DNA of 53,175 nucleotides from a virus. Position numbers and translations under genes: made by a program. The stretch spans positions 1-53,175 of IMG/VR virus record IMGVR_UViG_3300023103_000006; one strand, given 5' to 3'. The notes below the pieces were generated by a model. The model was not told the DNA's origin, made no database searches, and saw nothing but the letters and a program-made list of their open reading frames with translations. Each line of letters starts with the position of its first letter. Positions within the stretch are counted from its first letter, which is position 1. Positions 1-53,175 of this stretch are shown here, in pieces.

Positions 1-149
1 GTTTACTAATGAAACCAACAAAAACACCGATTGGAAGGTATGGACAAAGACACGGAAAAGCAAGAGAGAAAAAAGGATTGTCCACTAACAAAGTCAATTT
101 GTCTTACACCGGGCAAATGTGGGATTCATGGGAAGAAGAAAAAGGAGCT
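1..149. repeat. Terminal direct repeat (left copy), contig overlap
   Basis: This stretch matches 53027-53175 over 149 positions. It is identical from position 24 onward and has four mismatches at positions 5, 13, 18 and 23. The reading frame of the neck gene continues through it, so the simplest reading is that the contig is circular or circularly permuted and the assembler left an overlap. The clustered mismatches at the extreme edge look like strain variation or low-coverage consensus rather than two functional repeats. Confidence 0.95.
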
Positions 150-395: not shown

Positions 396-926
396 ATGTA
401 CATTAAAGACCAAATAGCCCTGATAGATGCGCAGATAGCCAAACAGCTTCCTAAAGAATGCGGTATTACTGATAGGTGGGATGCTAAATATCACGGTCTT
501 TGTAGAGTACAGCTAACACAAAATAATCACGGTGATAAGCCTTTATATTTACTGCATGAAACGGGCGAAGGATTGCCAAAGGTTACGATTGATGACGCTT
601 ACGATTTACAAATAATGCACGTAACGGCAAGTACTTCACCTTTATCTAGCCAGCAGTATGGGAACTATACAGACACCACCTATGATTACAGAATGAAACT
701 TTTGTACATGGGTAAAAAACAAACCGTGTTTGAAAGATTATTAGAAGCAATAAGAAACACACCGGATGTTAAATTCATGGGAAGTATCTTAGACACAGAA
801 ACCGTAATGAGAAATGAAATTAAAATAAGCGTAGACCAGGGTAAAAACTACCCGCCTGAATATTGGGCATTTTGTATTTATTATGGAGTAACAAATATTG
901 AACCTATAATTGAAGATGAACTATGA
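396..926 (+). CDS. Putative tail terminator / tail completion protein
   Basis: The protein has 176 residues, mixed alpha/beta composition and no signal peptide or membrane segment. It lies directly after the gp10-like neck gene and before the tail chaperone and tape measure, the position normally held by the tail terminator in long-tailed phages. The middle (residues 70-120) contains an extended strand-rich stretch followed by a helix (TVFERLLEAIRNTP), compatible with the small alpha/beta fold of terminators, but I see no diagnostic motif. The stop codon overlaps a possible ATG (ATGA at 923). Alternatives are a head-tail joining or minor tail protein. Confidence 0.5.
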   Translation: MYIKDQIALIDAQIAKQLPKECGITDRWDAKYHGLCRVQLTQNNHGDKPLYLLHETGEGLPKVTIDDAYDLQIMHVTASTSPLSSQQYGNYTDTTYDYRMKLLYMGKKQTVFERLLEAIRNTPDVKFMGSILDTETVMRNEIKISVDQGKNYPPEYWAFCIYYGVTNIEPIIEDEL

Positions 927-1078
927 TAGTAGTATGACACAAAATAGCAGAATACTTGGAACAAAAATACAGAAGAAACCTAGACCCGTTTGAAAAGAGT
1001 CTACACAAGACTACTGCTCATTGGAAGAAGACGAAAAAGAAACATGTAGATATATGGTCAGATACTACTAAACCCTAA
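923..1078 (+). pseudogene. Possible small tail gene interrupted by an in-frame TGA
   Basis: An ATG at 923 overlaps the previous stop (ATGA), as in many coupled genes here, but reads M-I-V-V and then TGA at 935-937. The same frame continues open to the TAA at 1076-1078 as a plausible basic peptide (HKIAEYLEQKYRRN then PFEKSLHKTTAHWKKTKKKH). Translation could instead begin at the TTG at 956 (about 40 residues). Deleting one base near 937 would also join the frame to the ATG at 934. The options are a sequence error, a decayed gene, a TTG-started gene or no gene at all. The 155 bases here are otherwise unexplained. Confidence 0.35.
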
Positions 1079-1081
1079 TTT

Positions 1082-1798
1082 ATGAATAGCATTTTCAAAG
1101 AACTTTTAGAATCCGGAAGAATAGACAAAGACCCTGTATTTACTTTTACCAGCGATGGAAAAGAATATAAAGGTTATACTTTTTCAAGTGACGGATGGAA
1201 GATGAACGAAAGCCGTTTTGAGGAGTATAACGAAGTGATGAAAGCCTACGAGGTTTTTAAAGTTGATAGAGAGGATTACGAAATTACAAGCAATATAGTA
1301 AAGGAAAATATCAAGCGTACAATAATGAGTTACGCTTCAGATGCTCATTCTGGATTCACGCTTTTAAATCAGGCATTGAGACAAATGGACGAACTAGAGC
1401 AAAGGATGGAGTTTAGTATTCCTTTGCAAAAGAGTTTTGATGCAATGAGTTTCACGGTATTGGAAGAAGATGAGAATCCATTAGTTTACGATTTTCAATA
1501 TAACAAAGAAAAGGTAAAACGCTGGATGAAAGATTTACCCATTGAAAAAAAAAGACCTTATTTGCAAAGTATGTTACAGGTTTTGCCAGAAGTCTCAATG
1601 CTCTTGCAATCGGATTCCCTGAATTATATTCACAACCAGGTGCTTTTGAACGCATCAACATTACAGATTCTTCTGCACTCGAAAGAATCAAATGGACTAA
1701 GCAAAGAAACGAAGCAATACATAAAATCACGGGTGGAAACCTTACAACAAAACAGCAACTACTTAACGGAACTTTCGAGGAGTATCACTTCTACGTAA
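1082..1798 (+). CDS. Tail assembly chaperone, zero-frame product (gpG-like)
   Basis: The zero-frame ORF has 238 codons and sits immediately before the tape measure gene, the classic position of the tail assembly chaperone. The first about 157 codons are acidic and helical with ordinary codon use for this genome. After the run of nine A residues at 1545-1553 the zero frame shifts to unusual codons (many CTG, CTC and TCG), while the -1 frame opens and looks more protein-like. This is the arrangement of lambda gpG/gpGT-type genes, where a programmed -1 frameshift makes a minor extended product that loads the tape measure. Assignment is by position and frameshift layout, not by motif. A sequencing indel in the A run is the main alternative. 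Confidence 0.6.
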   Translation: MNSIFKELLESGRIDKDPVFTFTSDGKEYKGYTFSSDGWKMNESRFEEYNEVMKAYEVFKVDREDYEITSNIVKENIKRTIMSYASDAHSGFTLLNQALRQMDELEQRMEFSIPLQKSFDAMSFTVLEEDENPLVYDFQYNKEKVKRWMKDLPIEKKRPYLQSMLQVLPEVSMLLQSDSLNYIHNQVLLNASTLQILLHSKESNGLSKETKQYIKSRVETLQQNSNYLTELSRSITST

Positions 1799-1857
1799 GT
1801 GCATGGAAAGCAGAACAGGAAGCAAAGAATAAGAAACCACAGCAAATAGATGAATGA
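1546..1857 (+). CDS. -1 frameshift extension of tail assembly chaperone (gpGT-like)
   Basis: The -1 frame has a TGA at 1543-1545 and then stays open from 1546 to a TGA at 1855-1857, overlapping the tape measure ATG (1850) by eight bases. The slippery heptamer A-AAA-AAA lies at 1546-1552 in register with the zero frame (codons 1547 and 1550). Slippage would give a 258-residue product: 157 zero-frame codons plus 101 new ones. The extension has convincing protein character: LYSQPGAFERI near the middle, LERIKWTKQRNEAIHKI, and TFEEYHFYVSAWKAEQE near the end. The fact that the open -1 frame begins exactly at the slippery run fits programmed frameshifting, but would also fit a one-base homopolymer error joining one continuous gene. 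Confidence 0.6.
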   Translation, partial: KKKTLFAKYVTGFARSLNALAIGFPELYSQPGAFERINITDSSALERIKWTKQRNEAIHKITGGNLTTKQQLLNGTFEEYHFYVSAWKAEQEAKNKKPQQIDE

Positions 1858-4800
1858 AACTGAAATTTTTAATTTTATATTCAAGTTTTCGGAAGAGGGC
1901 GCAACAGCACTAACACAGGAGCTTGCAGAACTATACGTACAGAATGAAAAATTAAAAAATCAGGCATTAGAATATCAATCTACGCAAAGAAAACTCAACG
2001 CTGAAAGAAAGACAGCCGCAGAAGAATCAAAAGCCGCTGCGATAGCTGAAGTTAATTCACGCTTAGGCATTCAAAATGGGGTCAAGACCGAAATAGGATT
2101 AATTCAGAGACTTACTTCTGAAATTAAACTACTAAAATCTGCAAGGGAACAAGCCAATAACGTATCAGACGTAAATAAGTATACAGGCGCCATACAAGCA
2201 GCACAGAAAGAACTTAATGCACTTACTGGGGTAACGGATAAGTTTAGAGGTTCTAATGGGTTCTGGCAGGACTTAAAAGGACAGGTGATGGCTTATTGGG
2301 CGGCTGTACAGGTAGGGGATGTAGGAAAGACCTTAATAAATAATGAGGTCAGATTAGAAGCGCTAAGGCTTGCCCTTAGAAATGTATTATCCACACAAGA
2401 AGAATATACACAAAGCCTTACTTTCCTTGATAACTTATCTAATAAGTACGGGCAGGATATTACAATCTTAACCGGAACTTATAAGAATTTTATTGCAGCT
2501 TCTCAGTCTTCAGGATTGGAATTGAAAGAACGTAATCGTATCTATGAAGCTATTGTAAAAAGTGGTGCAGCTTTAAGTTTGAGCAATGAAGAAATTGAGG
2601 GGTCACTTCGTGCGGTGTCTCAAATGTTTTCCAAAGGGAATGTACAGGCAGAAGAGTTAAGGGGTCAATTAGGCGAAAGATTGCCGGGTGCATTTGGATT
2701 GGCCGCCAAAGCATTGGGAGTGACAGAATCTAAGTTGAATGATATGCTAAAAGCTGGGCAGGTTTTAGCAGTTGACCTATTGCCTAAATTAGCAACCGAA
2801 CTAGAAAAGGCGTTTGGAGATAAAGCGGCAAATAATGTTAACTTAGTAACAGGTGCTTACAATAGACTAACTAACTCTATTAAGGATTATTTCGGAGAAG
2901 CTAATCAGAACTATGGTATTACCGACAAGATAGCCAAAGGGTTTAATTTTCTTGCTGATAACCTAAAAGAAGTTGTAAGTATTGGGGCTTCGGTAATTTC
3001 TACTATTGTAGCTTATACTATTGCATCAAAAGCCGCAGCCGGAGCAAGTGCCGCATGGACTGTAATAGAAAAAGCAGGTTTAATAATAAAAGGAGAGGCT
3101 ATTTTACTAACAAAGCAACAATCAATTGCAAATGCTACATTAACAGATACGCAATTAACAGCAGCAGCAGCAGCGCAAACATTTAATAATACACTTCTTA
3201 AAAATCCTATTGGGTTAATAGTTTTAGCAATAGGCACAGCAATAACGGCTTATCAATTGTACAACGCTTCAGTGGAAGATGCAGCAGAAGAACAAAAAAA
3301 GCTAAACAAACAAATTACAGATGCAATTGCTCCATTAGAATTACAAAAAAGAGAATTTAATAGTCTAGCTAATGAAGTGCTTAAAGGAGTTGTGCCACTT
3401 CAAAAACAATACGATACTTTAGAAGCCCTAAAAAAACAATACCCTGAATTGCTGAAAGGCGTAACTAGTTTGACAGAAGCGGAAAGGATATTGAATGAGA
3501 ATAAAATTAAGGTAAACACCCAAGATGATTATAGGTTAGAAAAGTTAGAAGCATTAAAGGCGCAATATCCTGAGCAATTGAAAGGTATTAACAATTTAAA
3601 AGATGCAGAAGAAAAACTAGGCAAAGTAATTAGAGACGTAAACGCAGATTTCGCTGTAAGAGCTACTTTATTAGAGGCAGAAATTAAATACGACATTAAC
3701 AGAGAAAAGGCAACTAATTTGATTAAGCAACAAATTGATGCAGAAGGAAAATTAGTTAATATCCGTAAACAATTGTCTATTGAAACTAAAAATAGTCTTG
3801 AGGGTAGGGAGGAGTTTATATCATCATTAAGAGAAGAAGAAAAACAATATCAAGGCGTAATTAATGCAGCTAAGGCAGGTGTTGTAAATTTAATAGGAGT
3901 AAACCAAAGCATTACTAAAATTCAAGAAGATGCTAAAAAACGATTAAAATACAGCACAGATGAAGTAGTAAAAATTACCAAAGATGGAGAAGACAAAAAG
4001 ACTAAAATAAAAGCAGATTCAGCAGCTACACAAGCGTTAATAGCAGAAAAAACCCGTATTACTGAATTAGAAAAATCAGAAGTACAGGAACAAAAGCTAT
4101 TGGCTATTGATAAGGACATTGCAATACAAAGAATAAAAGATAGCAAAAAAGCTACACAGGAAAAGGCATCTGAGATTTACAAAATTGAGGAAAAATTTAA
4201 GCAGGATTTGAATAGACTTACTCAGAAGTATGATGATAAGGAGCAAGAGGATGAAATAAAAAATGGTACATTAGTTGCTAAAATTAGAGCAGACTTTAGG
4301 GTAATTAATGAAAAAGATGAAAAGAAAAGCCTAGATGCTCAGATAAAAGCTATTGAAGCAAAATATAAAAATGAAATAGATATAGTAAGTAAATCTTCTA
4401 AATCTTACTCAGATAAGAAAGCTGAAATTACTAAGTTAGTCATTGAAGAGGAAAAGGAACTATTGACTATAAGAAGACAAATTCAATTTTTAGTAGACCT
4501 TGATAAACTACACAAAGAACAGTCCAGAAATATTAAACAGATTACCAAAGATATTCTTGAAAAGTGGAATATACAGGACAAGGTAGATAAAGAAGAGATT
4601 GAGCATCAAAGGGAATTAATAAAGCTATACGACGAAAGGCAAAAAGTTTTTGGCGATATGGTAGCAAGTATAGTTCCTGAGATAAAAGGATTGATGGATT
4701 ATAACGATGCTGTAAATAATGCCGGAAGAGCTTTAACTAACTTTGCAGACCAAAAGATAAAACTTCACGATATTGAAAAGAAATCTGGCATTCAATCAGC

Positions 4801-6883
4801 TGAATTTCTTAAGCAATTAGAGATAACAAACAAAGCACAAGAGGAATCAGTAAAGGCAAATACTGAATCAATGGTTAGTCAGTATCAACTACTATACAAG
4901 GCGGTTGAATTTGTATTTAATGAAATTAAGCAAGCAGCATCAAAAGCATTTAGAGCAATTGGAAGTGCAGCCGCAGAATCAAATAAAATATATCAGGATT
5001 TTGTAAAACAACAAAGGAATGCAGAATTAGCAGCCTATAAAACTGACCTAAACTACCGATTAGGATTGATAGAAGGCAATTATGATGCGCAAATTGATTT
5101 GCTAAAAGAGTACTTAGCCAAAGCTGAAGGTGTAATAAAAAAAGTAAATCTATCTGAAGATATAGCAGCACAATTGCAAATATCGACAGAAAAGATAGTA
5201 GGATTTACTAATTATGTATCTAACGAGATAGAGCAGTTTAGTTTGAACCCCTTTACTATGGCTAAAAACGCCTTTAGGCAATTGGGCGTTGCAATAGCTG
5301 GGTGGAAAAAAGAAAATACAGATGCAGCAGAAAAAGCAATAATTGCATCAACAAATGCAATTGAAAATTTACAATGGCAAAGGGATGAGTCTTTAAAACT
5401 ACTCGATGATATAGCGGACACATACAAAGATAAGTATGACGGTATGCTTGATGCTGTGAAAAAGGGATTAAGTGAACAAGTAGACGCTATTAAAGAGGGA
5501 ATGGGCGCATCAATTGATGCAATAAGAAACAGTTTAGACAAGCAAATAGAAATTTTGTCTTCTTGGTACGATGGGCAAAAGGATATAATTACACAAAGGT
5601 ATGCAGATATACTTGATAATAATGTAAGATACACTGATATTGCATTTGAGGAGCAACTAGCTATTTGGAATGCAGCAAGAACTGACCAGGAGAATATATT
5701 AATAGGGCAAAGAGACACCGAAAAAGATATTCTAAAACAAAAATATAAAGAAGGAAAAATTTCTTTAGAAGAATATACGGCACAGGCTAAAGTAGTTGAT
5801 GAGAAATACTTTAGTGATATTTTAGCGTTAAGAACTAAATTTTATGATGATTTACAAGCAAAAACTACACAATATAATAGTGACGAACTTAATAAGTTAA
5901 AAGATAGTTTATCTGCAAACCTTATTACTCAAGAGGAATATGATGCAAAAGTCGGAACGCTTGAAGACTTAGCAAAGCAGCGAAGCGCAGACATAAAGTC
6001 TTTAGTAAGACAAGATAGAGATAAGGACTTATCATTGCTGAAAAGTGACTATTTGGATTTAAAAGAAATGGCTGAGCAGAAATCTGCTGATGCTATACTG
6101 AAAATACAAACAGATTCAGCTACCGCAATAAAAAAAGCAGAAAAAGATGCAGGGGATGAGATTATACGATTAACAACAGAAAGGAACAATAAACTTGCTG
6201 ATTTAGCACGGCAGAGACTGTTAACAGAATTGACATATAATTCTCAGATATTTGAACAACAAAGAGCATTGGCTAATGCACAAGCACTTGTAGCAATGGC
6301 ACAGGCAAAAGCAGAGGCATGGAAGAATCCATTCACGGCAAAGGCGGTAATAGGGCAGATACAACAGGCTTTTGCTGAAATATTTGCGGCTATTGGTTCG
6401 GCAGTGAACCCATTTGACGCTGAGATAGTAAAGTATGTACCAGTAACTCCAGACACAAACAACCCAGTAGAACCGCCTCCAGGTGGAGGAGAAATAGGAG
6501 ATGGCGGAGCTATAAAGATAGCTAAGGGGATAGACAGGCTTCCAAACACTAATGGGAAGGTTGGGGTAGATACGCAGCCAGCAATGTTGGATGTAGGCGA
6601 AAGAGTTATACCCACCTACCTAAACGATATGCTGAAAAGCAAACTAGGCGTAGATGTAACCAACAAGCAATTAGTGAACATGGCTTTAGGTCAATTCGAC
6701 TTTCAAGGAATTGCCAACACGGGAAAGAATGTTTCAAGCACAGACCCTAGATTAGTAAATGCGATAAATGGACTGTCAAAGGAAATGAAGAATCTTAAAC
6801 AGGTAAATGTAAACGTGAAAAACGGAGTGCCGACAATTGAGGAAAGGAGTTATAATAGGATGATAAAATACACTAAACCATGA
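1850..6883 (+). CDS. Tail tape measure protein
   Basis: This 1677-residue protein sets tail length and is carried inside the tail tube. Residues about 150-330 match the N-terminal domain common to tape measures (LRNVLSTQEEYTQSLTFLDN through QAEELRGQLGERLPGAFGLAA). Hydrophobic stretches follow around residues 375-405 and 450-470, suited to membrane insertion during DNA entry. Most of the rest is coiled-coil rich in Lys, Glu, Ala and Ile. Near the C terminus (about 1560-1600) a Gly/Pro linker leads to the segment GERVIPTYLNDML typical of the tail-tip end. At roughly 0.15 nm per residue the tail would be about 250 nm; that figure is inference. It overlaps the frameshifted chaperone upstream and the lipoprotein gene downstream. 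Confidence 0.95.
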   Translation: MNETEIFNFIFKFSEEGATALTQELAELYVQNEKLKNQALEYQSTQRKLNAERKTAAEESKAAAIAEVNSRLGIQNGVKTEIGLIQRLTSEIKLLKSAREQANNVSDVNKYTGAIQAAQKELNALTGVTDKFRGSNGFWQDLKGQVMAYWAAVQVGDVGKTLINNEVRLEALRLALRNVLSTQEEYTQSLTFLDNLSNKYGQDITILTGTYKNFIAASQSSGLELKERNRIYEAIVKSGAALSLSNEEIEGSLRAVSQMFSKGNVQAEELRGQLGERLPGAFGLAAKALGVTESKLNDMLKAGQVLAVDLLPKLATELEKAFGDKAANNVNLVTGAYNRLTNSIKDYFGEANQNYGITDKIAKGFNFLADNLKEVVSIGASVISTIVAYTIASKAAAGASAAWTVIEKAGLIIKGEAILLTKQQSIANATLTDTQLTAAAAAQTFNNTLLKNPIGLIVLAIGTAITAYQLYNASVEDAAEEQKKLNKQITDAIAPLELQKREFNSLANEVLKGVVPLQKQYDTLEALKKQYPELLKGVTSLTEAERILNENKIKVNTQDDYRLEKLEALKAQYPEQLKGINNLKDAEEKLGKVIRDVNADFAVRATLLEAEIKYDINREKATNLIKQQIDAEGKLVNIRKQLSIETKNSLEGREEFISSLREEEKQYQGVINAAKAGVVNLIGVNQSITKIQEDAKKRLKYSTDEVVKITKDGEDKKTKIKADSAATQALIAEKTRITELEKSEVQEQKLLAIDKDIAIQRIKDSKKATQEKASEIYKIEEKFKQDLNRLTQKYDDKEQEDEIKNGTLVAKIRADFRVINEKDEKKSLDAQIKAIEAKYKNEIDIVSKSSKSYSDKKAEITKLVIEEEKELLTIRRQIQFLVDLDKLHKEQSRNIKQITKDILEKWNIQDKVDKEEIEHQRELIKLYDERQKVFGDMVASIVPEIKGLMDYNDAVNNAGRALTNFADQKIKLHDIEKKSGIQSAEFLKQLEITNKAQEESVKANTESMVSQYQLLYKAVEFVFNEIKQAASKAFRAIGSAAAESNKIYQDFVKQQRNAELAAYKTDLNYRLGLIEGNYDAQIDLLKEYLAKAEGVIKKVNLSEDIAAQLQISTEKIVGFTNYVSNEIEQFSLNPFTMAKNAFRQLGVAIAGWKKENTDAAEKAIIASTNAIENLQWQRDESLKLLDDIADTYKDKYDGMLDAVKKGLSEQVDAIKEGMGASIDAIRNSLDKQIEILSSWYDGQKDIITQRYADILDNNVRYTDIAFEEQLAIWNAARTDQENILIGQRDTEKDILKQKYKEGKISLEEYTAQAKVVDEKYFSDILALRTKFYDDLQAKTTQYNSDELNKLKDSLSANLITQEEYDAKVGTLEDLAKQRSADIKSLVRQDRDKDLSLLKSDYLDLKEMAEQKSADAILKIQTDSATAIKKAEKDAGDEIIRLTTERNNKLADLARQRLLTELTYNSQIFEQQRALANAQALVAMAQAKAEAWKNPFTAKAVIGQIQQAFAEIFAAIGSAVNPFDAEIVKYVPVTPDTNNPVEPPPGGGEIGDGGAIKIAKGIDRLPNTNGKVGVDTQPAMLDVGERVIPTYLNDMLKSKLGVDVTNKQLVNMALGQFDFQGIANTGKNVSSTDPRLVNAINGLSKEMKNLKQVNVNVKNGVPTIEERSYNRMIKYTKP

Positions 6884-11410: not shown

Positions 11411-11598
11411 TGGCTTATTTATATAACGTAGGGTTAAAGGTTATAGGCAATAGAGATAAAAGTATTATTGAGCCTAATCCCACACCACCAGTAGCAGGAA
11501 GCTGGAGACGAAGAGTATCGGGAGAAGGTGAAGCAAGTGTTTTGATTTACGAGAAGTTCGACGGTACGATTTGGGAAACTAAACAGGTAATATCTTAA
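11410..11598 (+). CDS. Small tail-module protein resembling the C terminus of its upstream neighbour
   Basis: This 62-residue protein starts in the stop codon of the preceding gene (TAATG). Its second half (AGSWRRRVSGEGEAS...IWETKQVIS) lines up with the last about 30 residues of the 833-residue tail protein (AGQWRDRIDEDTNLS...GWVLKSIIS), keeping A-G-x-W-R-x-R, the late Trp, Lys and the terminal Ile-Ser. It may be a duplicated attachment module that bridges the tail-tip protein to the next fibre component. Function is otherwise unknown. Confidence 0.7.
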   Translation: MAYLYNVGLKVIGNRDKSIIEPNPTPPVAGSWRRRVSGEGEASVLIYEKFDGTIWETKQVIS

Positions 11599-12608
11599 TG
11601 GCCGTAAATGCAGCGCAAATAGTCGAAGGACATTATCAAGGTTCTGCCGAAGTCATTGTAGAATGTGATGAAGCAGACGGAACCGACATTGTAGTATATA
11701 GGTATGTGAACGGAACCGCTACATTAGTAGGAACAGCAGAACTGGGAAACGATACCGGATTAGGAAGTGGCAAATCAAGAGTACCATTAACTGAGAATAT
11801 TTCAATTGGGAATCAGTTAGTAGCTTATGTTGAGGAAAGATGGAAGCAAGGAGGCGACCCAGTTCCGGTTTACGAGTTATCGGACGGATTAAGAACCGGG
11901 TGGCGTGGCCCTGACGTAATTTATCTGGATGGTGATGTAGAAATTAGCTACGAGGAGTACCAACAATTAGGAGGGCAGGAAATAGCAAGTGTCTATGACC
12001 CACAAGCCACGATAAACAATACAGTAAACAGATGTGGCGATGCGCCCAAACAATTTGCAGATGCTACTTTAATACTAGAAAAAACAACGGCAGATTTAGG
12101 CGCAGGAGTGGTAAACGTAGAATACGCAACAATAGGGAACTTTAATCCGGCTTTAGGTGCAGCACGTGTGCAATGGGATGGCGGAGCGATTACGCAGGAC
12201 TATCAACAGACTTTTGTATTTGCAGATAATGGAGCGCACGTTGTGAAAATATATCCAGAGAACTTGGATTACGAAACAAAAGAATTTCCTTTTACGGTTT
12301 CAGTAGCATCAGGAACGCCAGCCCCGGCAGTAGCAGATATAAGAGCAGTAGCGTACGAAATAAATCCGGCCGCTAACAGACAGGTAACTGTATTAGCGTA
12401 TTCGGATAGACAACTAGAAAGCAGAGTAGTAGGATTAGACGACGGAGTACATGGTTCAGGAGCATGGGTTGCAATGAGCGGTTCAACTGGCGGCAAATGG
12501 CAACAACCTATTCCTTTTCAGAATGTGCCAAACGGCAATTATAGTGTAGATTGCAGGGTACAAGGCACAGTAACGGTAGTAACAGTAGCTTTAAAAGTTG
12601 ATTTCTAA
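11598..12608 (+). CDS. Putative tail fibre / appendage protein with beta-sandwich domains
   Basis: The protein has 336 residues and begins in the stop codon of the preceding gene. Almost all of it is predicted strand and turn. It appears to comprise an N-terminal beta domain (1-95), a central region with a possible PKD or Ig-like fold (about 150-230, ending in DYETKEFPFTVSVASG), then a Pro/Ala linker and a C-terminal Ig-like domain (about 245-336). No enzyme motif is seen. Its place at the end of the tail module suggests an accessory fibre or tail-surface protein. Confidence 0.55.
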   Translation: MAVNAAQIVEGHYQGSAEVIVECDEADGTDIVVYRYVNGTATLVGTAELGNDTGLGSGKSRVPLTENISIGNQLVAYVEERWKQGGDPVPVYELSDGLRTGWRGPDVIYLDGDVEISYEEYQQLGGQEIASVYDPQATINNTVNRCGDAPKQFADATLILEKTTADLGAGVVNVEYATIGNFNPALGAARVQWDGGAITQDYQQTFVFADNGAHVVKIYPENLDYETKEFPFTVSVASGTPAPAVADIRAVAYEINPAANRQVTVLAYSDRQLESRVVGLDDGVHGSGAWVAMSGSTGGKWQQPIPFQNVPNGNYSVDCRVQGTVTVVTVALKVDF

Positions 12609-12620
12609 ATAAAAAATATC

Positions 12621-12875
12621 ATGGCAGATAATAAAGACGAAATAAAAGAAGCTACGCCTTCAAAAGAAGAGGCTAAAGCTCAGAAAAAGAAAATATTAAA
12701 ATGGACGCACGATATTACGGGCGGCAAGGTCTTGTTTGAAACACAAGGGTATGGAGAAAAGGAGAAAATCAAAGTTGAGATTAACGGAAAAGAAGAAGAG
12801 ATTGAAAACTATGGCAATCTGGCTATTTACTCACGAGGTGCAAGTTTCAAGGAGTTTCCGGCAGTAAAATATTAA
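12621..12875 (+). CDS. Small charged virion-operon protein, unknown
   Basis: This 84-residue protein has a Lys/Glu-rich N terminus (residues 1-27, likely disordered or helical) followed by a strand-rich part (KILKWTHDITGGKVLFETQG). It lies directly before the candidate major tail protein. Its acidic/basic low-complexity start and beta second half resemble small head or tail accessory proteins, but no family is recognised. Confidence 0.75.
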   Translation: MADNKDEIKEATPSKEEAKAQKKKILKWTHDITGGKVLFETQGYGEKEKIKVEINGKEEEIENYGNLAIYSRGASFKEFPAVKY

Positions 12876-12901
12876 ATTTACAATATAAACTTAAATAAAA
12901 T

Positions 12902-13873
12902 ATGTCTAGTACGCAAAACCTTATTTATGCTAACCTGCAAGGGGCAGGGGGGCTATCTACAGGACAAAACAGAACACTTAATACTTACGTAGCGATGGCT
13001 ATCATTAACAAGGGTGTTTTGCCTGCGGATGGTGCTGCGTATGCGGGCGACGCTGGCGGCTCATTAGTTCCGGCAGGGTTCGTAAATGGACAGTGGATTG
13101 CAAAGATTTGTCAGGATTTAGCCATTTTTAATAAAGCCCGTTGGCTGCCAAACGGAAGTATTACAGGCTCACAGGCAGAAACAGTCAATGTAACAGAAGG
13201 GCAGATTTACGGACTTGACCCGGCAGACGCTACGACCGGAGAAACGATGGATATGTTTGATATTCTGTTTAAGAATTATTTTCAGAACAGACAAGGATTA
13301 AACGCTATCAGAAGCCGCCCTCGTGATTGGGATATTGTTCTATTCACAAACAACACAGCAGAAATATACAGACGTGACGGTAGTAGTACAGTAATTACAA
13401 AAATTACAGATACCGCTGACGGAACAAATACTACATCAAGAAAAGGAACAATCAGCTTCGCTACGAGAGGTGTAGATGGTCAGGTTGTGCCTTTGGAGGG
13501 TATCAATGCGGCAGACTTAGGAGAGGTAAGTAACGTTTTTTACACACTTGCTTCAGGTGCTGACGTAAACCTAACAGCAGGGACTTGCAACGGAGATTTT
13601 AACAGATGGGTAAGAGATACAACTGTAACCCTTTCTTCTTTACAAATGGTTCCGTCTTTCGCTTCTCCTTGTGCAACTTATAGTTTATACCGTGTATTAG
13701 CTAATGGCACTTTGATTCCTTCTACTGGTAGTACTTATGCAAGTATCAATACAGTGACAGGACTTATCACGTTTCCGGCTGCACACGTTTTAGGGGCAAC
13801 AAAATACATTGCACAATTACAAAACGAAGTAGGGGTTCACGCTGAATACAAACTTGAAGTGCAAATAGCTTAA
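12902..13873 (+). CDS. Major structural protein, candidate major tail (tube) protein
   Basis: The protein has 323 residues, is rich in Gly, Ala, Thr and Asn, and has no signal peptide or membrane segment. The first about 240 residues form a mixed fold; the last about 85 residues look like an Ig-like domain (strands ending in KYIAQLQNEV and AEYKLEVQIA), a common decoration on major tail proteins. It has its own A/T-rich leader and is followed by a strong GC hairpin, both suited to high expression. No other gene is a better tube candidate. A head decoration role is the alternative. Confidence 0.5.
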   Translation: MSSTQNLIYANLQGAGGLSTGQNRTLNTYVAMAIINKGVLPADGAAYAGDAGGSLVPAGFVNGQWIAKICQDLAIFNKARWLPNGSITGSQAETVNVTEGQIYGLDPADATTGETMDMFDILFKNYFQNRQGLNAIRSRPRDWDIVLFTNNTAEIYRRDGSSTVITKITDTADGTNTTSRKGTISFATRGVDGQVVPLEGINAADLGEVSNVFYTLASGADVNLTAGTCNGDFNRWVRDTTVTLSSLQMVPSFASPCATYSLYRVLANGTLIPSTGSTYASINTVTGLITFPAAHVLGATKYIAQLQNEVGVHAEYKLEVQIA

Positions 13874-13887
13874 CAATCTAAAAAACA

Positions 13888-13907
13888 AAGGGGGATAACA
13901 CCCCCTT
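13888..13907. terminator. Strong GC hairpin after candidate major tail gene
   Basis: The stem is AAGGGGG / CCCCCTT (7 bp) with the loop ATAACA. On the + strand the hairpin is followed by TATATATAATG rather than a U run, so it may be a partial terminator or an mRNA 3'-end stabiliser. On the - strand it is followed by TTTGTTTTTTAG, a better terminator tail, although no leftward gene lies nearby. It separates the candidate tail protein from the portal gene and could keep the upstream transcript abundant. Confidence 0.6.
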
Positions 13908-13914
13908 ATATATA

Positions 13915-15834
13915 ATGCTTGATTTTCAAAGAATACTTCCTTATTTAAAAGTAGATGAAAATGGAATCCCGATAGACAAGAAATTGCGACACGCCGGGTA
14001 TGACAGAAGCATTGAAATTGCAAATGATATAAAGGACGTATTCAGCGAAAAGTTCCCTGAGTTTTTAAAAGTAAAGAGACCCAAAGAAAAGGCAGTTCAT
14101 TTGAAATACCGGGAAATGATTTACTTGAATAAGGTAATGAAGTTCCGAACCAAAGCAATGTCTTTGATAACTACGATAAAGCAGAACGATGATTTTAACG
14201 TAACTTTTAAGGATGAGAACATTTTCAAGGACTACACGGAAACTGAAATGTTTGATAATCAAACCTTGCCAGAATGGTTCTTTTCTGAATGGGCAAAGTT
14301 TAGTATTGACGACCCGAACGCAGTTATCGCACCTGTCTTAAAGGATTTTGCAGAGAATGACCAGGAGTTTAACCAACCAACTTTAAAGATATTCTCATCT
14401 GTTGGTGTAATTCAACTAAACAAGGATATTTGCGTTTTAAGAGGTGACGAAAAGACATGGATTAACGTAAACGGTACACAAGAGAAAATAGGACGTAATC
14501 TTTATTTTTACGACAAAGATTCTTTTCTAATTTGTAGACAAACAGGTAAAAATGTAACAACCGAAAACGAAACCAATTATAATTGGCAGATAATTGGACA
14601 AAATTTAGTTGAATTTGAAAATGAAATATTAGAAGTTCAGCCATTTGCAACCAATACTACCAAGATTCCTGCACAGAGAATCGGACGTATATTAGGCGAG
14701 AAGATAGACGGAGAAGTGCAATTGTTTAATAGTGAGATTTCAGACGCACTGCCGTACCTTAAAACAATTGGTTTAAGGATTTCGGATACTGAAATTGAAT
14801 ACTTACAGCACATACATACGGTAGAATGGTTTGTAACAACAAAGCACGAATGTAAAGAACCTGGGTGTGTTAATGGGTACGTAACTAATCCGACATGGAG
14901 ACCAGGCACAGACATACCGCCAAAACACAAATGCCCAAAATGTGACGACAAAGGATTTCCTATTAATGGACTTGAAATTATCGTGCATACGGTTTCAGAT
15001 GATGGCGGCATAGATTCTAACAAGAGTGCCAGTATACCTAATCCACCCGGAGGTTTTATACCGAGAAACATTGAAACGGTTCGGGAACTGAGATTGGAAA
15101 TTGCTAATAACGAAGCCAGCGCATACGGAACAATGGATTTGCTCTATATGTTTGAAACCCCACTAAACACAAGTGGAAAGTCTAAAGCCTATGACAGACA
15201 GGACAATTACATTCGTAGAGCAGATATTAGCGTACACACTAAGAAGCAGATAGATTTCGGATACAATAGTACAGCGTGTTTTATGCTTGGTACAATTGGA
15301 AATGTAGAAAGGTATTTGCCAGTAGTGAATGTGCCGACCGACAGTTTTGATTTAGCGACCCAAGAAGAAGCCTTAAAAGACCTTACAGAAGCGAGTGGAG
15401 TGGTTAGCGGTATTGTACAAAATGCTTTAGAAATACGATACATACAAAAACAATTTGGCAAAGATACAAGTCTATCTAAATTGCTAATTCTTCATAATCG
15501 AATTGACCCATACGACTCTATTAAAGGAGGTAATAGGGCGGAAGTTTTAGACCTGATGATGTTTAACAACATTAAATTGTATGGGATAGATAGTGAAAAT
15601 TTAATGTTTTTGGTAAAGAAAAATACATTAGCGAAGCAAAAAGACAGCATTGTAAAGGATTTGATTAAATTATATCCTGACTTTTTAGATTTTAAAATTG
15701 AAAAGCAGGACGCATTAATTGAGACACAGTTAGAATTTTATCTTCCTGAAAAAATAAGTGAAGACGTTTATAAACCAATTAAGCAAGAGCCAATGGTAGA
15801 CGTAGTAAAAGAAAACCAAGTGGCATTAAATTAA
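13915..15834 (+). CDS. Putative portal protein with inserted Cys4 zinc-ribbon-like loop
   Basis: This 639-residue protein precedes a scaffold-like gene and the major capsid gene, the usual position of the portal, the dodecameric ring through which DNA is packaged. Length and helix-rich C-terminal half fit a portal. Residues about 312-345 hold four cysteines in two pairs, C-x4-C-V-N-G and C-P-K-C-x2-K-G, resembling a DnaJ-type zinc-binding loop; this is not a standard portal feature. The N-terminal region (about 60-90) contains FRTKAMSLITTIKQ, a helix like those of portal wings. No diagnostic portal motif is certain, so the call is mainly from context. Confidence 0.6.
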   Translation: MLDFQRILPYLKVDENGIPIDKKLRHAGYDRSIEIANDIKDVFSEKFPEFLKVKRPKEKAVHLKYREMIYLNKVMKFRTKAMSLITTIKQNDDFNVTFKDENIFKDYTETEMFDNQTLPEWFFSEWAKFSIDDPNAVIAPVLKDFAENDQEFNQPTLKIFSSVGVIQLNKDICVLRGDEKTWINVNGTQEKIGRNLYFYDKDSFLICRQTGKNVTTENETNYNWQIIGQNLVEFENEILEVQPFATNTTKIPAQRIGRILGEKIDGEVQLFNSEISDALPYLKTIGLRISDTEIEYLQHIHTVEWFVTTKHECKEPGCVNGYVTNPTWRPGTDIPPKHKCPKCDDKGFPINGLEIIVHTVSDDGGIDSNKSASIPNPPGGFIPRNIETVRELRLEIANNEASAYGTMDLLYMFETPLNTSGKSKAYDRQDNYIRRADISVHTKKQIDFGYNSTACFMLGTIGNVERYLPVVNVPTDSFDLATQEEALKDLTEASGVVSGIVQNALEIRYIQKQFGKDTSLSKLLILHNRIDPYDSIKGGNRAEVLDLMMFNNIKLYGIDSENLMFLVKKNTLAKQKDSIVKDLIKLYPDFLDFKIEKQDALIETQLEFYLPEKISEDVYKPIKQEPMVDVVKENQVALN

Positions 15835-15839
15835 ATATT

Positions 15840-16142
15840 ATGGCAAAGAATAAAGAAGAAGAAGGCACACCAATTGGGTTATCTGAAAAAGAGTTTTTTG
15901 CAAGAAAAGACCTTTTGGAAAAGAAAGCACGCATCTATGTAGAAGTAGCGGAAGGCAGAGGAGAAGACGAAAAAGGTAAATCTATCGTGATGTACCCGGC
16001 TAAAGAAATCGAAGTACAGCCAGCTTATTGGAGTACTATTTTACGAGACAAAGAGACGGGCGAACCAATGAAAGAACAAAAGTTAGTTGGCTACAAGATT
16101 GAAGAGAACGGAGAAATGAAACATTATAAATTTAAAGAATAA
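15840..16142 (+). CDS. Small protein between portal and scaffold, unknown
   Basis: This 100-residue, highly charged protein (many Lys and Glu) has a central strand region (ARIYVEVAEG, IVMYPAKEIEVQ). It is packed tightly between portal and scaffold genes with A/T-rich spacers and no Shine-Dalgarno. Its place suggests a head-assembly or head-tail role. No family recognised. Confidence 0.7.
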   Translation: MAKNKEEEGTPIGLSEKEFFARKDLLEKKARIYVEVAEGRGEDEKGKSIVMYPAKEIEVQPAYWSTILRDKETGEPMKEQKLVGYKIEENGEMKHYKFKE

Positions 16143-16144
16143 AT

Positions 16145-16987
16145 ATGAAATTAGGCACAGTAATTAACGAGTTCGCAAAAAAGGCAGGACTTGATTTGAC
16201 TAAAATCAAAGACCTAGTAGACGAGCTGAACGCATCTGACAAGCAAATTGACGATGACGTAGCAACACAACTACAACAAAGCCTTTTGACCGAATCGGAA
16301 GCAGAAAGCCGATTCATGAGCAAACACAAAAACGGTCTTTTGACTCAAGGAAAAAAGGAAGCATGGGACGATATAGACAGGAATCATGCGGAAATTATTT
16401 CTCTGTTAGACGCAGAAGACAAAACCAAATTCGATGCACTGAAGACTACAAAGGAAAAAGATAAATTTCTTTTCAACTTCTTTATCGAAAGAAAGATAAC
16501 CGACAAGGATTCTTTAGCAATCAAAAAAGCGCACGACACCTTGTTGTCGAAGATTGACACGGATTACGTGCCTTTATCAAAACACAAAGAGCTAGAAGAC
16601 AAGTATAAACCAAAGGCGGACAAAGCGTTTTTCAGCGAATTTGTAGTTGATGCCGTAACAAATAGTAAAATATCTGAGACTTTTAAATCAAATAAAAGAT
16701 TCAGAACAAATTTAAAAACAGATTTTGATGAACTCCTGACAAAAAGGGGCTGGACTGTAAATACTGAAACCGGAGAGTATTTGGATAAGGAAGGCTTGCC
16801 TGTTTTGAAAGGAAGTGAAAAAATGAATAACAATGATATTCTTGACGAACTTATGGCAAGTGACGAAGAGTATCTCAAAAAGTCTAATGGTAAACCTGCA
16901 AGTGGGGAAATAACAGTTGATGTACCAAAGGTGAACGGAAGTAGCCTTTTGAATAATCCTAACTATAAAAACCTTGTGAGGCAGTAA
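16145..16987 (+). CDS. Putative capsid scaffold protein
   Basis: This 280-residue protein is rich in Lys, Asp and Glu and mostly helical, with a long charged middle (residues 60-170) and a flexible C terminus (SGEITVDVPKVNGSSLLNNP). It lies immediately upstream of the major capsid gene, where scaffolding proteins are encoded in most tailed phages. Such proteins guide procapsid assembly and then leave. Its composition resembles Gp20/Gp14-type scaffolds, but the evidence is position and composition only. Confidence 0.65.
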   Translation: MKLGTVINEFAKKAGLDLTKIKDLVDELNASDKQIDDDVATQLQQSLLTESEAESRFMSKHKNGLLTQGKKEAWDDIDRNHAEIISLLDAEDKTKFDALKTTKEKDKFLFNFFIERKITDKDSLAIKKAHDTLLSKIDTDYVPLSKHKELEDKYKPKADKAFFSEFVVDAVTNSKISETFKSNKRFRTNLKTDFDELLTKRGWTVNTETGEYLDKEGLPVLKGSEKMNNNDILDELMASDEEYLKKSNGKPASGEITVDVPKVNGSSLLNNPNYKNLVRQ

Positions 16988-17031
16988 TGCTAATTGGCGC
17001 AATTTAATCTTTAAAAATTAAACCAACGACA

Positions 17032-18288
17032 ATGGCAAATAATGTAAATTTAGGTGCAGCCCGGGGGCTGTATGCAGCAATTCTGCATGTAACAAATAAC
17101 TATTACCGATTCACTAACGTAGGAACAACAGGCGCATTGCGTGACCCAGCAAGTAAGCAGATTCAGGACGCAACGAATCCTTTTTTGCTTCAGAATACGA
17201 GCGGAACGACGATTGGTTACGCAGCAGGAACAAGTAACGGAAAACTTACTTTAACGTGGACGCCAGCTTATGCAGGTGGTTATCGTACTTCACGTATCGG
17301 AGCAGGTGGGGCAGCAGATTCAAATGGTGTAAAAACTATTCAGGCGGCACAAAGTTTGGTTTTCAACTTCGACAAAGTAATTGAGTTTGAAGTAATTCAA
17401 CCTTTGGCAACGGCAGATTTCTTTTTGGAGCCTTTGACTATCGAGTATTTGGATAAGTTAGAAAATCCAAAATACATGGTTGAGGCTTTGAACGATGGTA
17501 GATACACAGGAACTCGTGCGCAACTTGTAAGAGTGGGTAATGAAATAATGCGTCGTCTGGACAGAGACATGTTGATTCCGATGGATGATGATTTAATTGC
17601 GACTGTGGCAACTGGAGTAGGACGTAATGTAGCCTATCCTTGGGATAGCACCAATGGAACTTTAAATGCGCCAATCACGCAGATATATGCTTTCAAAGCG
17701 GACGGCACACCGGATGCTGATTTCTGGAACTACATTCAGAACAGTTCTCGTGATAACCGCTACGAAGGTAAAGCGATATTTGTTGGCGGTTCTAAAATGG
17801 CTCAGTACATGCAATTAAAAGGCATTGTAGGGCTTGCAGATACCGGGTATAAGTTAGATGCTCAAATTGAAAATCTTCCTGTACACTGGTATTATGATGC
17901 ACGTATTGACACTATCTTGGGACAAGACGAGTTCTTGATGTGGGATTCTGGCGCAGCAGCTTTGCAAACATGGCTTAATCATAGCACTTACGGAACTGTA
18001 AGACAAAAACGCTATGCAAACATGGATTACGGCAATATGAATGTAACGGTAGGACAATATCGTGGTATCGGATTAGATGGGAATCTTGACAAAGACAATA
18101 TCTCTTTAGATATGGACGTTCGTATTTTGGAAGGTAGAGATTCTGCCGATTATCCAACAAGCCGTGTAGTGCCTTCGATTAACTACGGTGTATTTATGCG
18201 CCCGGTTGGTTACTTCACTTCTGACAATACCGACCCTTTGTATTACATGACTGGTATTTTTAGAGGAAAACTTTTAACAAGGGCTTAA
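17032..18288 (+). CDS. Major capsid protein (HK97-fold, inferred)
   Basis: The protein has 418 residues. It follows portal and scaffold-like genes with a 44-base A/T-rich leader of its own. The central part has the features of an HK97-type subunit: a long helix with IEYLDKLENPKYMVEAL and TRAQLVRVGNEIMRRLDRDML (about 135-185), a domain with KAIFVGGSKMAQYMQLKG (about 240-265), and a C-terminal strand region that ends in a peptide containing GVFMRPVGYF. No protease gene is visible nearby and no N-terminal delta domain is obvious, so maturation cleavage may be absent. Confidence comes from gene order plus fold-like features. Confidence 0.75.
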   Translation: MANNVNLGAARGLYAAILHVTNNYYRFTNVGTTGALRDPASKQIQDATNPFLLQNTSGTTIGYAAGTSNGKLTLTWTPAYAGGYRTSRIGAGGAADSNGVKTIQAAQSLVFNFDKVIEFEVIQPLATADFFLEPLTIEYLDKLENPKYMVEALNDGRYTGTRAQLVRVGNEIMRRLDRDMLIPMDDDLIATVATGVGRNVAYPWDSTNGTLNAPITQIYAFKADGTPDADFWNYIQNSSRDNRYEGKAIFVGGSKMAQYMQLKGIVGLADTGYKLDAQIENLPVHWYYDARIDTILGQDEFLMWDSGAAALQTWLNHSTYGTVRQKRYANMDYGNMNVTVGQYRGIGLDGNLDKDNISLDMDVRILEGRDSADYPTSRVVPSINYGVFMRPVGYFTSDNTDPLYYMTGIFRGKLLTRA

Positions 18289-48609: not shown

Positions 48610-48634
48610 AATTTAATTTTTTTTTATTCCTTTG

Positions 48635-52870: not shown

Positions 52871-53175
52871 TAACCATAATAACCCCCGACGCTAAATTAG
52901 AGAAAGCAAAACAAAGCATTGAAAGTTTTGTAAATGTGATTCCTGATATTATCTTTGAGGCAGCAGGCAAAGCGGCCGACATGGTACAGGATAGAGTAGA
53001 AGGGCAAGGACTTGCGGCAAATGGAAGTTTTCTAATGACACCATCAAACACACCGATTGGAAGGTATGGACAAAGACACGGAAAAGCAAGAGAGAAAAAA
53101 GGATTGTCCACTAACAAAGTCAATTTGTCTTACACCGGGCAAATGTGGGATTCATGGGAAGAAGAAAAAGGAGCT
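52867..53175 (+). CDS. Neck / tail-completion protein, gp10-like (5' part; gene continues at 1-314)
   Basis: Codons 1-103 of a 157-residue protein; it continues without frame change at position 150 once the 149-base overlap is removed. The start at 52867 overlaps the small membrane gene (ATGA). The N terminus reads ITIITPDAKLEKAKQSIESF then VNVIPDIIFEAAGKAADMVQ, the amphipathic helix pattern of HK97 gp10-like neck proteins. Confidence 0.6.
   Translation, partial: MITIITPDAKLEKAKQSIESFVNVIPDIIFEAAGKAADMVQDRVEGQGLAANGSFLMTPSNTPIGRYGQRHGKAREKKGLSTNKVNLSYTGQMWDSWEEEKGA
53027..53175. repeat. Terminal direct repeat (right copy), contig overlap
   Basis: Second copy of the 149-base overlap with positions 1-149; see the left copy. 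It supports a circular or circularly permuted genome of about 53,026 bp. Which of the two edge variants is correct (positions 1-23 against 53027-53049) cannot be decided here. Confidence 0.95.

What the first reader, a model, noticed from the sequence alone, without database searches (positions are those of the whole stretch)
1545..1857. Apparent -1 programmed frameshift in the tail chaperone, with a 101-codon extension
Seen: nine A residues hold the heptamer A-AAA-AAA in frame; the -1 frame is blocked just before the run and then open to 1857, overlapping the tape measure start. The extension reads more like a protein than the zero-frame tail. Known: tail chaperones in lambda-like phages use a -1 shift in just this position. 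The zero frame also stays open for 82 more codons, which is longer than usual.
Basis: partly seen in the sequence, partly recalled or inferred. Interest (0 to 1): 0.7.

Follow-up and report, generated by a model that had tools for sequence, protein, structure and literature searches.

The report
Phage chaperone gene read two ways
A phage tail-building gene carries a run of nine identical bases at which its reading frame switches, so that one stretch of DNA appears to encode the ends of two different proteins; the same layout, almost always with exactly nine bases, recurs in 24 lineages of related bacterial viruses and proviruses.

Summary
In detail: nine A at 1545-1553 hold an in-frame A_AAA_AAA. 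The -1 frame is closed by a TGA at 1543-1545, then open to 1857 and overlaps the tape-measure start (1850). It has no start codon giving 40 or more residues.

It is not an assembly error. Homologues (111 sequences, 24 lineages below 70% identity) all have the -1 extension. 22 of 24 lineages carry exactly nine T or nine A at the switch point, in two codon phases; two carry T_TTT_TTC. None has 7, 8 or 10.

Its 38-91-codon tail is present in every lineage and is under selection. Inside the overlap, conditional dN/dS is 0.06 for the zero frame (equal to the single-frame part of the gene) and 0.13 for the -1 frame. One stretch thus encodes two alternative C-termini.

Whether the switch is ribosomal -1 frameshifting or RNA-polymerase slippage is unproven. 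I favour polymerase slippage: run length is conserved rather than codon phase, nine A or T is the documented efficient length, and no RNA structure follows. The two T6C lineages argue for ribosomal shifting.

The family has no Pfam or PHROG match and none in 50,697 annotated phages. The chaperone role is inferred from position and layout.

The parts
1082..1798 (+). Zero-frame ORF of the putative tail assembly chaperone: shared N-terminal part up to the run, then zero-frame C-terminal tail; 238 aa
   Evidence: homologues L002 (97%) and L003 (55% in the shared part); profile reaches 24 lineages
1543..1545 (+). TGA that closes the -1 frame immediately before the run
   Evidence: sequence and frame analysis
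1545..1553 (+). Nine-A run, the site of the frame switch (GAA AAA AAA AGA)
   Evidence: A9 also in L002 and L003; 20 further lineages have T9 at or within a few codons of the same point
1546..1552 (+). In-frame slippery heptamer A_AAA_AAA, the site if the shift is ribosomal
   Evidence: sequence
1552..1857 (+). -1-frame C-terminal extension, 101 codons plus TGA (1855-1857)
   Evidence: 32% identity to L003; conserved in all lineages
1554..1798 (+). Dual-coded stretch, both frames open; zero-frame stop TAA at 1796-1798
   Evidence: zero-frame identity W/L003 0.40 against 0.17 expected from the -1 protein alone, P<1/3000; negative control P=0.59; dN/dS in related clade
1799..1857 (+). Part of the extension encoded in the -1 frame only
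   Evidence: 2 differences to L002, both synonymous in the -1 frame
1850..6883 (+). Tape measure protein (1677 aa); its start overlaps the end of the extension by 8 bases
   Evidence: phrog_2335 E 3.7e-54; PF20155 TMP_3 E 2.5e-28

Best explanation
The gene makes two tail assembly chaperone proteins that share about 157 N-terminal residues and differ entirely after that. Most messages are read in the zero frame and give a 238-residue protein with its own C-terminal tail. A minority switch to the -1 frame at the nine-A run and give a protein of about 258 residues with a different, 101-residue C-terminus. Both tails come from the same 245 bases and both are under selection (shown). The -1 route through the homopolymer is strongly implied by comparison. 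The favoured step, inferred, is that RNA polymerase slips on the nine-base run and inserts one extra A (T in related phages), so ordinary translation then reads the -1 frame. By analogy with lambda gpG and gpGT, the abundant form would coat the tape measure and the rare form would bring in tail-tube subunits (inferred). Confidence in two selected C-termini joined by a -1 switch is about 0.93; the figure below also includes polymerase slippage as the main mechanism.
For: Architecture in 24 lineages: 20 T9, 2 A9, 2 T6C, with extension 86-106 codons and zero tail 38-91 codons. Run length is constant while codon phase is not: NNT TTT TTT TTG in 19 T9 lineages, GTT TTT TTT TAC in L278, GAA AAA AAA AGR in the window clade; the encoded residues change from FFL to KKR or FFY. 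In the T9 phages the wobble base before the run is always T. Only 3 other runs of nine or more in about 167 kb. Both frames constrained: conditional dN/dS zero 0.062 (0.046-0.081), -1 0.127 (0.097-0.164), upstream 0.064. Window/L003 zero tail 40% identical against 17% expected, control flat. No downstream RNA structure, z about 0 in 14 sequences. Literature: A runs over 7 and T runs over 8 are implicated in programmed polymerase realignment (PMC3711429); slippage is efficient in vivo at 9 A or T and the polymerase hybrid is 9-10 bp (PMC5009743). All assembled copies outside the two T6C lineages are exactly nine, against replication-level phase variation.
Against: Every run also contains an in-frame ribosomal slippery heptamer, and two lineages (L277 in a tail module, L190) have only T_TTT_TTC, where polymerase slippage should be weak, yet keep both frames. 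Lambda-type shifts also work without a strong RNA structure. The T9 to A9 change is a single observed event. The window clade has only three sequences. No RNA or protein data exist. The chaperone role rests on position: no Pfam or PHROG match, and the folds were low confidence with no structural match.
Confidence: 0.55

Rival explanations
1. Same two selected products, but the switch is classical -1 ribosomal frameshifting on A_AAA_AAA (T_TTT_TTT, T_TTT_TTG or T_TTT_TTC in relatives), as in lambda G/GT.
For: In-frame heptamer in every member. L277 and L190 keep both frames with only a T6C heptamer. Tail chaperones generally use ribosomal -1 shifting (PMC5009743). 57 of 133 other tape-measure loci show candidate -1 pairs, mostly with ordinary heptamers such as AAAAAAC and GGGAAAC.
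Against: A heptamer does not need nine identical bases, yet 22 of 24 lineages have exactly nine in either codon phase and none has 7, 8 or 10. No stimulatory structure downstream.
Confidence: 0.38
2. Only the -1 extension is functional; the zero-frame tail is a by-product left open by chance.
For: Window against L002: 4 of 5 differences in the overlap are synonymous in the -1 frame and 1 in the zero frame. Zero tails vary in length between lineages.
Against: Zero-frame dN/dS in the overlap 0.062 in the related clade; zero-frame identity far above expectation in divergent pairs including window/L003, with a flat control; open in all 24 lineages.
Confidence: 0.04
3. Sequencing or assembly indel, or a decayed gene.
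For: Homopolymers are error-prone.
Against: Same layout in independent metagenome contigs and genomes, with T9 as well as A9 and with two conserved frames.
Confidence: 0.01
4. Replication-level phase variation: the run changes length in DNA and switches the product.
For: Homopolymers of this length can vary in DNA.
Against: Every assembled copy outside the two T6C lineages is exactly nine, with no 8 or 10.
Confidence: 0.02

Closest known systems
Lambda gpG/gpGT tail assembly chaperone and its counterparts in other tailed phages (reviewed in PMC5009743)
   Same: Gene directly before the tape measure; -1 switch late in the first frame; longer product carries a second domain; extension ends at the tape-measure start.
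   Different: Zero frame continues 38-91 codons and is under selection, so the C-terminus is dual-coded; the site is a nine-base homopolymer; no detectable sequence similarity to described chaperone families.
Programmed transcriptional slippage at A or T runs: Thermus dnaX, Shigella mxiE and spa13 (PMC5009743, PMC3711429)
   Same: A or T run of about nine or more within a coding frame; a product in another frame results; no downstream structure needed.
   Different: Not previously reported for a tail chaperone in the papers held; both alternative tails are long and conserved; transcript heterogeneity not yet measured here.
Overlapping (dual-coding) genes in viruses
   Same: Two frames of one stretch both under purifying selection.
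   Different: The two frames share one start and one N-terminal domain and are alternative endings of the same protein.

Membership tests
Frameshifted tail assembly chaperone (lambda G/GT type) | Lies immediately upstream of the tape measure gene | tested here: met
   Window. Across 100 homologous sequences with over 1 kb downstream, 93 are followed by a long ORF and 32 of these score as TMP_3-like
Frameshifted tail assembly chaperone (lambda G/GT type) | Second ORF in the -1 frame, joined through a slippery site, without its own start | tested here: met
Frameshifted tail assembly chaperone (lambda G/GT type) | Unshifted product ends shortly after the slip (usual, perhaps not defining) | tested here: not met
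   zero tail 38-91 codons in all 24 lineages
Frameshifted tail assembly chaperone (lambda G/GT type) | Sequence or fold similarity to a known chaperone family | tested here: inconclusive
   no Pfam or PHROG match; models of pLDDT 59 and 69 with no Foldseek match; low similarity between such chaperones is usual
Frameshifted tail assembly chaperone (lambda G/GT type) | Binds tape measure and tail tube; set ratio of the two products; absent from the virion | not testable with these tools
   needs phage genetics and biochemistry
Programmed transcriptional slippage | A run longer than 7 or T run longer than 8 | tested here: met
   A9 or T9 in 22 of 24 lineages; thresholds from PMC3711429
Programmed transcriptional slippage | Transcripts of more than one length | not testable with these tools
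   no RNA data
Programmed -1 ribosomal frameshifting | In-frame X_XXY_YYZ heptamer | tested here: met
Programmed -1 ribosomal frameshifting | Stimulatory structure downstream (common, not obligatory) | tested here: not met
   80 nt downstream of 14 members, z between -0.73 and 2.15
Dual-coding overlap | Purifying selection in both frames over the same bases | tested here: met
   divergent pairs; negative control

The most novel reading that the evidence does not exclude
A large family of Bacteroidota phages sets the ratio of its two tail-length chaperones at transcription, by polymerase slippage on a run of exactly nine bases, and uses the same DNA to encode two different, selected C-terminal domains. 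Runs of 9-11 A at candidate sites of unrelated Bacteroidota chaperones (Pedobacter, Larkinella and viral contigs) hint that this could be wider.
Probability: 0.5. Interest if true: 0.75.

Novelty: new variant of a known kind. Interest (0 to 1): 0.62.

Why it matters
Frameshifted tail chaperones are textbook examples of ribosomal recoding. Here the site looks built for the polymerase instead, and the unshifted protein is not a mere truncation but has its own conserved ending. If confirmed, it shows a second way to fix the product ratio in phage tail assembly, gives a long and clean case of two selected reading frames sharing one start, and tells annotators that both the zero-frame tail and the hidden -1 extension are real in a family that public databases do not name.

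Tried and rejected
Pfam and PHROGs on the shared part, both tails and 23 homologues: nothing significant. tblastn of the fusion and of two distant homologues in 50,697 phages: nothing credible. AlphaFold of both products: low confidence (pLDDT 58.9 and 69.4), and Foldseek with the extension model found nothing. RNA structure downstream: none. Flavobacterial phages with the nearest annotated tape measures (L015, L016) carry an apparently unrelated protein of about 210 aa there, so they were not used as homologues. TMP scans with narrow patterns gave the two near relatives, L009 and L010, or nothing. Close pairs in the identity test (L276/L277, L142/L231) were set aside because the negative control shows shared ancestry inflates them. 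Phase variation and assembly error were rejected by exact nine-base runs in all other relatives.

Full report
OBSERVATION. The window is a phage record whose ends overlap by 149 bases with 145 matches. The run A9 lies at 1545-1553 and is read GAA AAA AAA AGA in an ORF from 1082 to 1798. The -1 frame carries a TGA at 1543-1545 and is then open to the TGA at 1855-1857, so that its last eight bases overlap the tape measure, which starts at 1850. The tape measure is certain (PF20155 E 2.5e-28, phrog_2335 E 3.7e-54). No ORF of 40 or more codons starts within the -1 frame, so the extension can hardly be made without a frame switch.

NEAR RELATIVES. Two viral contigs carry close homologues: L002 (97% in the shared part) and L003 (55%). 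Both have exactly A9 at the same codon, both have the extension, and both keep a zero-frame tail of exactly the same length. L003 is 32% identical to the window in the extension and 40% in the zero-frame tail. Window and L002 differ at 9% of bases upstream of the run but at only 2% inside the overlap; local mosaicism means this pair alone proves little.

DISTANT RELATIVES. Fetching loci through the conserved part of the tape measure, then profile search, found homologues in which the run is T9 instead of A9. A scan with those and whole-genome searches raised the set to 111 sequences in 24 lineages below 70% identity. Hits lie in 9 of 396 genomes of one order that includes a Chitinophagaceae MAG and 0 of 395 drawn across the phylum with the first profile. 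None is found in 50,697 annotated phages. At the switch point 20 lineages have T9, two (the window clade) A9, and two (L190, L277) T6C. No lineage has 7, 8 or 10. Nineteen T9 lineages read NNT TTT TTT TTG; L278 reads GTT TTT TTT TAC; the window clade reads GAA AAA AAA AGR. In the alignment of the extensions the A9 of the window lies about three codons upstream of the T9 of the others, so the site appears to have been replaced rather than mutated base by base; this is one inferred event. Across about 167 kb of these loci only three other A or T runs of nine or more exist.

BOTH FRAMES ARE SELECTED. In the T9 clade, substitutions in the overlap were sorted by their effect in each frame and divided by opportunity. 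Over 31 independent close pairs the zero-frame dN/dS is 0.062 (95% CI 0.046-0.081) and the -1-frame dN/dS 0.127 (0.097-0.164), against 0.064 in the single-frame upstream part; these are the values conditional on the change being synonymous in the other frame. Conditional on a nonsynonymous change in the other frame they are 0.21 and 0.44. For divergent pairs, redrawing the synonymous codons of the -1 proteins predicts zero-frame identity of 0.17 for window/L003 against 0.40 observed (P<1/3000), with similar results in other pairs. The same test on the single-frame upstream part shows no excess for window/L003 (0.22 against 0.22, P=0.59) or most divergent pairs, but does for very close pairs, which are therefore discounted. 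Position-specific rates agree.

MECHANISM. The -1 product needs either a ribosomal shift or an extra base in the message. Evidence for polymerase slippage: run length is kept while codon phase, base and encoded residues change; the lengths match those reported for slippage (A over 7, T over 8: PMC3711429; nine A or T slip efficiently in vivo and the hybrid is 9-10 bp: PMC5009743; the E. coli polymerase is more slippage-prone on T runs: PMC6260861); and there is no downstream structure. Evidence for the ribosome: a proper heptamer is always present, and L277, which sits in a tail gene module, and L190, on a contig without recognisable tail genes nearby, have only T_TTT_TTC. Both mechanisms may act together. 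My weights are 0.55 to 0.38.

ROLE. The label tail assembly chaperone is inference from position before the tape measure and from the lambda-like frame switch. Neither protein matches a known family, and structure prediction was too weak to help. By analogy with lambda (PMC5009743) the abundant product would coat the tape measure and the rare one recruit tail-tube protein. What the extra zero-frame tail adds is not known; the best guess from its conservation and predicted helices is a binding surface used by the abundant form.

COMPARISON. Among 133 other tape-measure loci, 57 show a candidate -1 pair. Most sites there are short heptamers such as AAAAAAC and GGGAAAC, often with short zero tails. 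A few loci have A9-A11 (Pedobacter L031 and the matching viral contig L124, Larkinella L025, L104/L105/L107, L135, L167). So long runs at this place are not confined to this family, but fixed nine-base runs with a selected dual-coded tail are, so far, its mark.

NOVELTY. The papers found in the searches made contain no report of transcriptional slippage in tail chaperones or of a dual-coded chaperone C-terminus; the primary survey of tail chaperone frameshifts (Xu 2004) was not available to read. I rate it a new variant of a known kind.

Noticed in passing
L025:3900, L031:3370, L124:3370, L104:3032, L135:3939, L167:3730: Candidate switch sites of other, apparently unrelated chaperones before tape measures (hosts where named: Larkinella, Pedobacter) also carry A runs of 9-11, unlike the A6C and GGGAAAC sites common in proteobacterial loci.
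   Followed up: partly
L034:3729, L161:2867, L144:2829, L046:3476, L067:3888, L056:3248: Other chaperone-like loci with T6 heptamers and zero-frame tails of 27-64 codons; possible further dual-coded families.
   Followed up: no
L047:1307, L054:4038, L075:3559, L139:4064: A group sharing the heptamer AAACCCT with a zero tail of 31-33 codons and an extension of about 60 codons before the tape measure.
   Followed up: no
window 1-149 and 53027-53175: Ends overlap by 149 bases with 4 mismatches near the start, so the record is probably a complete circular or terminally redundant genome.
   Followed up: partly
window 926-1081: Stretch between two conserved genes where window and L002 differ strongly, up to about half of the bases, while both flanks are similar; likely a mosaic or rapidly changing segment.
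   Followed up: no
window 48617-48625: The only other nine-base A or T run in the window (T9), in an apparent gap between genes.
   Followed up: no
L190 (L271:588-1232, minus strand): Distant homologue with both frames intact and a T6C site on a 15 kb contig without recognisable tail genes nearby; a prophage remnant or a recruited gene.
   Followed up: partly
window 11598-18285: Five of the structural-looking genes tested here, including the putative capsid region, have no significant PHROG match or only a weak one, so the phage is far from described groups.
   Followed up: no
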